From Bacillota bacterium (GTDB taxonomy: Bacteria; Bacillota_C; Negativicutes; Sporomusales; Sporomusaceae): DNA of 8,095 nucleotides. The number at the start of each line of letters is the position of its first letter. Position 1 is the stretch's first letter. The position numbers were made by a program, and so were the translations under genes. The stretch is taken from NCBI GenBank assembly GCA_023441125.1, contig JAEZQV010000051.1, positions 1 through 8,095 of the forward strand, in the 5' to 3' direction. This document shows, in pieces, positions 3,776 to 5,016 of the stretch. The notes below the pieces were generated by a model. It was given only the letters and a program-made list of their open reading frames with translations, was not told the origin of the DNA and did not search any database.

Positions 3776-3928
3776 TCATTTACCGACACAGCCAAACTGA
3801 CCGGGTTCTTGCGCCACCGTAACCAGCGTGTCTTTACTGCCGCATTTTTCGCAGGTTTCCGGCTTTTGTCCGGCCGCAGCCTTGTGCATGAAGCCGCAAT
3901 GGGTACACTTGTACAATAAATCGGCCAT
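3776..3928 (-). CDS. Rubredoxin-like zinc-ribbon protein (50 aa)
   Basis: A 50-residue protein with two CxxC knuckles: KCTHCGF (C8, C11) and TCEKCGS (C26, C29). This is the spacing of the rubredoxin-like domain found alone or at the C-terminus of rubrerythrins. It should bind one zinc or iron through four thiolates. It lacks the YxCxxCGYxYd and PxxWxCPxCG signatures of true electron-transfer rubredoxin, so a structural zinc site is more likely. A fifth cysteine (C47) lies near the C-terminus. ATG 3928 is preceded by AAAGGAGG, with AGGAGG at 3938-3943, 9 nt upstream. A promoter at 3958-3986 and the shared hairpin at 3728-3770 make it a monocistronic unit. Role unknown; such proteins are frequent in strict anaerobes. 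Confidence 0.85.
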   Translation of the reverse strand: MADLLYKCTHCGFMHKAAAGQKPETCEKCGSKDTLVTVAQEPGQFGCVGK

Positions 3929-3986: not shown

Positions 3987-4007
3987 TATGTTTCGTGAAA
4001 ATAATAA

Positions 4008-4529
4008 TTACTGGGTCCGGAAATCGCGCGGCAATTTGATGGAGCCGGTATGCGGCCGCTTGGGCCCGGGTTCATAGGCTAAGCAGCGTACCGCTTTGCC
4101 GTCAGCAGGCTTGCCGGCTGGCTGTGTAAAATTTTGCGCAAAATGCTGGCAGTGGTTCCCGGCTTTAAACAGGCACCCCGGGCAATCGGCAGTTTGCATT
4201 ACTATTCCCTGCCGGGCTGATAGTAGGAACTGGCGGGCATTTGCCAGTTCACTGACATATTCGTTGATCAGCCTGGTCAGACCTGGCGTCGCCAGACAAT
4301 TTAATTTTTGCAGGCTTTTCAGGGCTCTGTCCAGTTCAATCTCATCGAGCTTTACATCGGGAATTTGGGCCAGTAATGCCGGATCAGCAGTCAAGGTTTT
4401 CAGCTTCTCTTTGGCTTGCAGGGCATTAGAGCCGAGATAAAGGGACGTGTTTTGCGGCAGTCTGGTTGCCGGATTATAGACGCTGTCTTTCAAATAGAAG
4501 GTGCCGTTTTTTCGCAGTTCAATATACAT
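4008..4529 (-). CDS. Uncharacterised protein with four-cysteine C-terminal motif (173 aa)
   Basis: Not a family I can name. Residues 1-35 (MYIELRKNGTFYLKDSVYN) look like a short beta-hairpin module. They loosely resemble the N-terminal leader of some IS4/IS1634-type transposases, but no transposase catalytic domain follows. Residues 37-105 are helical and leucine-rich. The C-terminal third holds CPGC (C116, C119), then HCQH (H126, C127, H129) and C149, a CxxC-x7-C-x21-C pattern suited to zinc or an iron-sulfur cluster. An in-frame ATG 39 nt further upstream exists, but AGGGAGG lies 7 nt before ATG 4529, so the shorter start is chosen. It is transcribed from a near-ideal promoter overlapped by the 27-bp repeats. 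It may therefore be tightly regulated, possibly by itself; that is speculation. Confidence 0.72.
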   Translation of the reverse strand: MYIELRKNGTFYLKDSVYNPATRLPQNTSLYLGSNALQAKEKLKTLTADPALLAQIPDVKLDEIELDRALKSLQKLNCLATPGLTRLINEYVSELANARQFLLSARQGIVMQTADCPGCLFKAGNHCQHFAQNFTQPAGKPADGKAVRCLAYEPGPKRPHTGSIKLPRDFRTQ

Positions 4530-4559
4530 CGCAATGCCTCCCTTGCTGATCAAACTTGC

Positions 4560-4586
4560 TATAATCACATTTTAAATATGAGTCTA
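4560..4586. repeat. Operator-like inverted repeat A (degenerate right arm)
   Basis: Left arm TATAATCACA (4560-4569) is identical to units B and C. A 7-bp spacer is followed by TATGAGTCTA (4577-4586), which matches TGTGATTATA at 7 of 10 positions. It would lie within the leader of the minus-strand transcript. Confidence 0.65.
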
Positions 4587-4603
4587 AAAATCTATAAAAT
4601 CAA

Positions 4604-4630
4604 TATAATCACAAATAAACTGTGATTATA
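4604..4630. repeat. Operator-like inverted repeat B
   Basis: TATAATCACA (4604-4613), 7-bp spacer, TGTGATTATA (4621-4630): perfect 10-bp arms, 12 bp if the flanking A/T pairs are counted. It starts 44 bp after unit A and reaches the -10 box and expected start point of the minus-strand promoter. Confidence 0.85.
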
Positions 4631-4658
4631 TTATACCATTATCCCCTTATAATCACAA
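4630..4658 (-). promoter_or_regulatory. Strong sigma-A promoter of the 173-aa gene, overlapped by repeats B and C
   Basis: On the minus strand, TTGTGA (4658-4653), exactly 17 bp, then perfect TATAAT (4635-4630) with an extended TGG in front. Transcription should begin near 4623, giving a leader of about 94 nt. The -35 box lies inside the left arm of repeat C and the -10 box abuts repeat B, so a protein on these repeats would block the polymerase. Confidence 0.7.
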
Positions 4659-4674
4659 TCGAGATGTGATTATA
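4648..4674. repeat. Operator-like inverted repeat C
   Basis: TATAATCACA (4648-4657), 7-bp spacer, TGTGATTATA (4665-4674). The pairing extends through flanking CCT/AGG to 13-bp arms (4645-4677). It starts exactly 44 bp after unit B and covers the -35 box of the minus-strand promoter. Confidence 0.85.
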
Positions 4675-4751
4675 AGGCGCCTTTCTGTCACCCTCTTTTA
4701 TCAGGTAAGTTAGCCAGTTATTTGGGAACACTAATGCCGGAGGTGAATGAT

Positions 4752-4946
4752 TTGCAAAATAATACAGCTGCTGTCAGCGGCTCCCGGCGCGATAAAGTAG
4801 CGCCAAGTGAAGCTGATATGGCACAAAGAATTGAAACTCCGACGCAGGCGCGTTCCCGGCAACCGGCCGGTACAGCTTCCACGGCCAATCGCTCTTACCC
4901 AGAAGCTTTGGCCCGCGGTATGGAGACTCCCGCTGACGCCGAATAA
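4752..4946 (+). CDS. Small disordered hypothetical protein, TTG start (64 aa)
   Basis: Unrecognised 64-residue hydrophilic protein, MQNNTAAVSGSRRDKVAPSE at the start, rich in Ala, Thr, Pro, Arg and Glu, with no cysteine or membrane segment. It is probably disordered. It contains an imperfect internal duplication, AQRIETPTQA (about residues 24-33) and ARGMETPADA (about 54-63), both with R-x-x-E-T-P or R-x-M-E-T-P. The start is taken as TTG 4752 because GGAGGTGA (4739-4746) is ideally spaced. An in-frame ATG at 4734 and a TTG at 4722 lie upstream of or inside that site. It diverges from the 173-aa gene across the repeat array and is followed by a strong hairpin. The composition is somewhat like small spore proteins, but no SASP signature is present, so that name is not given. 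Confidence 0.6.
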   Translation: MQNNTAAVSGSRRDKVAPSEADMAQRIETPTQARSRQPAGTASTANRSYPEALARGMETPADAE

Positions 4947-4968
4947 CCTTAGCCGGTAGCTGCCGGCA

Positions 4969-5016
4969 CAACCCCAGGCCCTTTTATCCGCTCCGGGGAT
5001 AAAGGGCCTGGGGTTG
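4969..5016 (+). terminator. Large hairpin terminator after the 64-aa gene
   Basis: CAACCCCAGGCCCTTT (from 4969) pairs with AAAGGGCCTGGGGTTG (ending 5016). ATCC/GGAT continues the stem after a single bulged T. The stem is about 20 bp. The tract after it (TTTA) is short, so termination may be partial and some transcription could reach the hydrolase at 5097. Confidence 0.7.

What the first reader, a model, noticed from the sequence alone, without database searches (positions are those of the whole stretch)
4560..4674. Three 27-bp inverted repeats at an exact 44-bp period between divergent genes
Units A, B and C start at 4560, 4604 and 4648. Each is TATAATCACA, 7 bp, TGTGATTATA. B and C have perfect arms; A keeps a perfect left arm and 7 of 10 bases on the right. 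The spacers differ in sequence but are all 7 bp, so the arms and geometry are what is kept. The array overlaps the -35 and -10 boxes of a near-consensus minus-strand promoter and lies between a 173-aa unknown protein and a 64-aa unknown protein. The arms resemble CRP half-sites turned inside out (TCACA then TGTGA), and I know no standard regulator with this box. This looks like a cooperative operator for an undescribed regulator.
Basis: partly seen in the sequence, partly recalled or inferred. Interest (0 to 1): 0.72.

Follow-up and report, generated by a model that had tools for sequence, protein, structure and literature searches.

The report
Self-control switch of Sporomusa protein
Three mirror-image DNA sites sit across the start switch of one uncharacterised gene, recur with nearly the same layout before that gene in related bacteria, and are probably where the gene's own protein binds to turn itself down; the protein matches no described family.

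Summary
In detail: three 27-bp dyads at 4560, 4604, 4648, exact 44-bp period. Among 380 Negativicutes genomes 9 carry a close relative of the 173-aa gene; all 9 have such dyads across a promoter TTGTGA-17-TAnAAT. Arms differ by lineage (TATAATCA or TANACTCA) yet stay mostly symmetric. A two-unit array pattern hits that promoter in 8 of the 9 genomes and otherwise 4 genomes with 2-3 mismatches; the reversed control hits 3. So the array belongs to the 173-aa gene; the divergent 64-aa ORF looks incidental. Three distant relatives (two sharing only the N-terminal domain) have a dyad ending on their start codon. Protein residue 2 follows operator position 5: Tyr with A in 20 of 24 half-sites, Asn/His with C in 37 of 38. 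Best reading: an autorepressor operator read by the protein's N-terminal domain, predicted as three strands plus helix, without Pfam or NCBIfam match. Binding is inferred, not shown. Side finding: a serine-recombinase element splits spoVK in many Negativicutes and sometimes carries this gene.

The parts
4648..4674 (-).
   Evidence: palindromic unit 1 (8-10 of 10 arm positions paired) at this place in 7 of 10 loci; in L019, L024, L025 only 2, 5, 3 positions pair and essentially the TTGTGA half remains
4653..4658 (-). -35 box TTGTGA
   Evidence: TTGTGA-17-TAnAAT in 10 of 10 loci
4630..4635 (-). -10 box TATAAT, last base shared with unit 2
   Evidence: TATAAT in 7, TAAAAT in 2, TACAAT in 1 of 10 loci
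4604..4630 (-).
   Evidence: unit 2 recognised in 10 of 10 loci (weakest L024, 6 of 10 positions paired)
4560..4586 (-).
   Evidence: recognised in 10 of 10 loci, in L017 by eye with one extra spacer base; 43 instead of 44 bp from unit 2 in L019
4537..4544 (-). Ribosome-binding site (AAGGGAGG) of the 173-aa gene
   Evidence: read from sequence
4008..4529 (-). 173-aa gene: conserved N-terminal domain (residues 1-47), helical middle, C-terminal part with four invariant Cys (C116, C119, C127, C149)
   Evidence: no Pfam or NCBIfam family at E<=0.1
4734..4946 (+). Divergent small ORF (70 aa from ATG; 64 aa from the TTG at 4752); probably incidental
   Evidence: two database proteins, one identical (P0033) and one relative (P0034)

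Best explanation
The array is the operator of the 173-aa gene and the 173-aa protein is most likely the repressor that binds it (negative autoregulation). A dimer would hold each 27-bp dyad, one N-terminal domain per TATA(C/A)TCA(C/T)A half-site. Unit 1 covers the -35, unit 2 the -10/start region, unit 3 the leader, so occupancy blocks RNA polymerase; three sites at a fixed 44-bp step would sharpen the response. The four-cysteine tail may bind metal or an iron-sulfur cluster and set binding strength. SHOWN: the dyads, their conservation, the conserved promoter, the near-restriction of the array to this promoter in the genomes searched, dyads at the start of distant relatives' genes, the residue-2/base-5 correlation. 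INFERRED: binding, repression, dimer per dyad, cooperativity, sensing.
For: 10 of 10 loci (window plus 9 genomes) carry dyads at the same place relative to a conserved promoter. A leave-one-out matrix finds a dyad in the last 200 bases before the start in 13 of 13 family genes, with 0 of 300 shuffles reaching the score for any; the 10 close loci supplied the matrix for each other, so the independent tests are the 3 distant ones. Pattern search of 380 genomes: arrays at the 173-aa promoter in 8 of 9 carriers, single 2-3-mismatch hits in 4 other genomes, 3 genomes for the reversed control. All 8 zero-mismatch single sites that one search lists lie in these arrays (list cut). Distant relatives keep the same half-site. 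Residue 2 separates operator classes; in the 10-locus tree the N2/C-type L017 groups with the Y2/A-type window and L025 (support 0.94). Unit 1 and most of the first arm of unit 2 lie upstream of the predicted start, so, if that start is right, an RNA function cannot explain them.
Against: No binding or expression data. No significant fold match for either model; the full 173-aa model is moderate (pLDDT 69, pTM 0.45). The residue-2 correlation rests on 13 related loci with weak tree support elsewhere (0.45-0.86); two half-sites in Y2 genomes (window unit 3, L024 unit 2) carry C and the Y2 protein L098 goes with G. Unit 1 is not palindromic in L019, L024, L025. The step is 29 bp, not 44, in the two Sporolituus genes. 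G305 is missed and G303 found only with 2 mismatches, as weak as some non-carrier hits. The loose single-site pattern exceeds its control (115 against 73 places over 9 genomes), so extra weak sites are not excluded.
Confidence: 0.68

Rival explanations
1. The array is a transcriptional operator of the 173-aa gene, but another, unlinked regulator binds it; the 173-aa protein does something else.
For: Conservation and placement show an operator, not who binds it. The protein has no recognised DNA-binding domain by Pfam.
Against: A separate regulator with essentially one target gene would be unusual (general knowledge). Dyads also sit at the start of distant relatives' genes in other genomes, and operator base 5 follows residue 2 of this very protein.
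Confidence: 0.17
2. The 173-aa protein is a recombination accessory factor (excisionase or directionality factor) of the spoVK serine-recombinase element, and the dyads are mainly its sites.
For: In G304 and G094 gene and recombinase lie between the spoVK halves; in G299 and G300 they lie together next to the spoVK C-half; G301 has a recombinase remnant beside the gene.
Against: Only 6 of 26 genomes with the recombinase have the gene; G298 and G305 keep gene and array without an orthologous recombinase; in G297 and G303 the gene lies about 9-10 kb outside the element; the array is registered to a promoter.
Confidence: 0.07
3. RNA-level control: hairpins in the leader (attenuation, RNA-protein switch).
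For: The region folds far better than shuffles (z -5.8 on the minus strand), as any DNA palindrome would. Unit 3 lies in the predicted leader.
Against: Unit 1 and most of the first arm of unit 2 precede the predicted start; no Rfam match; no terminator-like site; spacers vary between loci.
Confidence: 0.05
4. A dispersed repeat (REP or MITE type) or chance.
For: The bare 18-base site occurs in 8 stretches of genome contigs and 7 of viral contigs.
Against: The fetched stretches around those sites hold no family member above threshold; arrays are promoter-bound in 8 of 9 carrier genomes and near control level elsewhere; 0 of 200 shuffles.
Confidence: 0.03

Closest known systems
Autoregulated repressors with conserved inverted repeats in their own promoter (the principle I take Snowprint to use; PMC10858194, abstract and outline seen)
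   Same: Conserved dyads upstream of the gene in relatives, over the promoter
   Different: Here the protein has no known DNA-binding family, three dyads at 44-bp steps, and no other conserved target was found
CRP/FNR operators (recalled: TGTGA-N6-TCACA)
   Same: TGTGA and TCACA words
   Different: Opposite order, 7-bp spacer, longer arms; most relatives have CTCA(C/T)
Beta-sheet DNA-binding domains: AP2/ERF, integrase arm-binding domains (recalled)
   Same: Predicted three strands followed by a helix in the first 47 residues
   Different: No sequence or significant structure match was found here
Sporulation gene-intervening elements skin, SP-beta/spsM, gin (PMC5595907, passages seen; the others from listings)
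   Same: Large serine recombinase element splitting a sporulation gene, sometimes carrying the 173-aa gene
   Different: Target is spoVK; the array is not part of its core

Membership tests
Autoregulatory operator | Dyads overlap the promoter of the regulator gene and are conserved with it | tested here: met
   10 of 10 loci
Autoregulatory operator | Array essentially confined to that promoter | tested here: met
   8 of 9 carriers hit, only at this promoter; 4 other genomes with 2-3 mismatches against 3 for the control; not testable in the window's own genome
Autoregulatory operator | No further single sites in the genome | tested here: inconclusive
   115 places against 73 for the control in 9 genomes; list cut in G301, and G303-G305 not shown
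Autoregulatory operator | Encoded protein binds the dyads | not testable with these tools
   only indirect:
CRP/FNR site | TGTGA-N6-TCACA order and spacing (recalled) | tested here: not met
   TCACA-N7-TGTGA
AP2/arm-type beta-sheet DNA-binding domain | Three-stranded sheet plus helix matching solved members | tested here: inconclusive
Described protein family | Match to a curated Pfam or NCBIfam model | tested here: not met
   window protein; 33 members against Pfam give only weak scattered hits, best E 0.0024 to PG_binding_1; P0035-P0037 best E 0.036. NCBIfam was run on the window protein only
Recombination directionality factor of the spoVK element | Constant partnership with the recombinase | tested here: not met
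   6 of 26 recombinase genomes carry the gene; 6 of 9 gene carriers have the orthologous recombinase
RNA leader element | Match to a described RNA family | tested here: not met
   0 matches at gathering scores

The most novel reading that the evidence does not exclude
A new class of bacterial repressor: a three-strand-plus-helix DNA-reading domain without helix-turn-helix, whose second residue chooses base 5 of each half-site (Tyr for A, Asn/His for C), joined to a four-cysteine metal or iron-sulfur sensor, and controlling essentially only its own promoter through a 44-bp-phased triple operator.
Probability: 0.3. Interest if true: 0.66.

Novelty: new variant of a known kind. Interest (0 to 1): 0.52.

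Why it matters
It pairs an undescribed protein family with its probable operator in Sporomusa and yields sharp tests: a one-residue swap at position 2 should switch preference at one base pair. A protein reading DNA from its first strand would add to the few beta-sheet readers (recalled). Why a protein would control only itself, and what its four cysteines do, is open.

Tried and rejected
Window genome: none held. Exact-site scans of genome contigs and viral contigs: 8 and 7 stretches; several sites are followed by T-runs as in terminators (L003-L006), others lie inside ORFs of viral contigs (L011, L012, L015); no family member above threshold in those stretches. Homologues in viral contigs (113-aa and profile queries), phages (173-aa query) and plasmids (113-aa query): none; plasmid DNA search of 4000-4990: none. 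PHROGs: nothing below E 0.089. Structure searches of both models: no match at E<=0.001 in PDB, nor for the second model in the viral library; VIA second looks gave middling Z, for the N-part to ribosomal or pre-ribosomal chains. Sequence search of PDB: best E 0.058, not meaningful. In G308 a pattern with 7-base spacer gives 2 places, one at each relative's gene (one at its start, one at the other's 3' end), control 1. RDF idea rejected as above. Papers: listings of searches (15 of 97, 15 of 49, 8 of 367, 8 of 18 shown; 0 papers) showed no description of this operator or protein; the 4 papers holding both arm words concern, by title, HIV antibodies, maize microRNA, breast cancer and starter-culture prophages, and were not opened. 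P0034 was not followed.

Full report
OBSERVATION. On the minus strand the order is unit 1 (4674-4648), unit 2 (4630-4604), unit 3 (4586-4560), then the ribosome site and ATG at 4529. The promoter TTGTGA-17-TATAAT lies at 4658-4630: unit 1 contains the -35 and unit 2 follows the -10. A start near 4623 (inferred) puts unit 1 and most of unit 2's first arm outside the RNA.

WHOSE OPERATOR. The 173-aa protein has 32 database homologues, from Sporomusa where an organism is named. Among 380 Negativicutes genomes 9 carry a close relative; a profile adds 2 genomes (3 places) with distant relatives, 11 in all. Upstream of all 9, in the gene's orientation, are dyads of the same build. An automatic scan for 27-mers with at least 7 of 10 paired positions finds two or more units in register in 9 of the 10 loci; in L024 unit 2 pairs at only 6 positions. 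Unit 1 to unit 2 is 44 bp in 7 of 7 loci with a palindromic unit 1; unit 2 to unit 3 is 44 bp in 9 of 10 and 43 in L019 (for L017 the left arm of unit 3 was counted by eye, its spacer being one base longer). The promoter is kept in 10 of 10. In L019, L024 and L025 unit 1 survives only as the half that is also the -35. Neighbouring genes, named by eye except spoVK and recombinase (tblastn), differ: LysM protein and HtpG, LexA, spoVK, a serine recombinase. The array therefore goes with the 173-aa gene, not with the divergent 64-aa ORF, which has one database relative besides itself.

PRIVATE OR REGULON. A two-unit pattern with the 44-bp register, 3 mismatches allowed, hits 12 of 380 genomes: 8 of the 9 carriers, only at this promoter, and 4 others (G121, G136, G141, G291) once each with 2-3 mismatches; the reversed control hits 3 genomes. 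G305 is missed, consistent with its 43-bp step and lost unit 1; G303 is found with 2 mismatches, no better than two of the others. The looser single-site pattern gives 115 places against 73 for the control in 9 genomes (its table was cut within G301, so G303, G304 and G305 were not shown). All 8 zero-mismatch places listed lie in the arrays; of 8 one-mismatch places listed, 4 do.

WHO BINDS. Two Sporolituus proteins (L099, L100) match the profile only over residues 1-51 and 1-57; L098 of G296 matches over 1-120. In each a dyad ends on the start codon. L099 and L100 have a second unit 29 bp further up (counted from the sequence), lying between plausible -35 and -10 boxes. With a matrix trained on the 10 close loci L099, L100 and L098 score 27.3, 19.1 and 16.3, and 0 of 300 shuffles reach them (for L098 the best shuffle, 15.7, came close). 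Half-site base 5 is A in Y2 proteins (20 of 24; 2 C, 2 G) and C in N2/H2 proteins (37 of 38; 1 T); left out of that count were unit 1 of L019, L024 and L025 and unit 3 of L017. Residue 2 is the only residue of positions 1-47 that separates A-type from C-type proteins fully; up to residue 110 the others are 48, 50 and 93. In the 10-locus tree L017 (N2, C-type) groups with window and L025 (Y2), so the pair may have changed together more than once; with 13 loci this is suggestive only.

PROTEIN. Residues 4-47 are the most conserved part and C116, C119, C127, C149 are invariant in 33 sequences. Models give strand-strand-strand-helix, then helices (pLDDT 69, the Sporolituus relative P0037, pLDDT 91.8). 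No Pfam, NCBIfam or significant PDB match. A beta-sheet reader is thus a hypothesis from topology. The Sporolituus proteins lack the cysteine tail.

ALTERNATIVES. An unlinked regulator, RDF, RNA hairpins and a dispersed repeat are weighed in the rival list. The gene sits in or by a spoVK element in several genomes, but 20 of 26 recombinase genomes lack it.

LITERATURE. Searches showed nothing on this protein or operator; listings were cut and only titles and abstract starts were seen, except passages of PMC5595907 and the abstract and outline of PMC10858194.

VERDICT.

Noticed in passing
both halves: L029, L127-L132, L135, L137, L138, L139; one half: L030, L031, L123-L125, L133, L134, L136; none in reach: L126: A ~507-aa large serine recombinase lies by or between two halves of spoVK split at about residue 188, a skin-like element in Negativicutes. 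Recombinase in 26 of 380 genomes at E<=1e-130; of 20 of these examined, 11 show both spoVK halves, 8 one half, 1 none in the stretch fetched. spoVK is whole in G305, G298, G301. Searches (cut listings) showed no paper with spoVK as the interrupted gene. Excision in sporulation is not shown.
   Followed up: partly
L034:2852-5368 (G094): In G094 the stretch between the spoVK halves also holds genes that look like thiG, thiH and thiE (names recalled from their sequences), i.e. thiamine genes.
   Followed up: no
G299 C4:442892 and 734633: The two spoVK halves lie about 292 kb apart on opposite strands, suggesting a rearrangement after insertion.
   Followed up: no
L026:5432, L026:5504, L033:6209: LexA-box-like sequences (motif recalled) between the 173-aa gene and a LysM protein gene that resembles YneA (recalled); a LexA-like gene is near in L027 and L033.
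   Followed up: no
L119 (G308 C17:56590-56616): A further family-like dyad at the 3' end of a Sporolituus relative's gene; may be a terminator.
   Followed up: no
L020, just upstream of unit 1: A stretch GCTGATATGGCACAA matches the window's small divergent ORF (near 4813) but on the other strand relative to the 173-aa gene; remnant or chance.
   Followed up: no
L002:2712: An exact site at the start of an IS607-like resolvase gene (resemblance recalled), shortly after a TATAAT-like box.
   Followed up: no
window 3776-3928 (-): 50-aa zinc-ribbon protein directly downstream of the 173-aa gene on the same strand, weak rubredoxin-like matches below the curated cut-offs; whether relatives have it there was not tested.
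   Followed up: no
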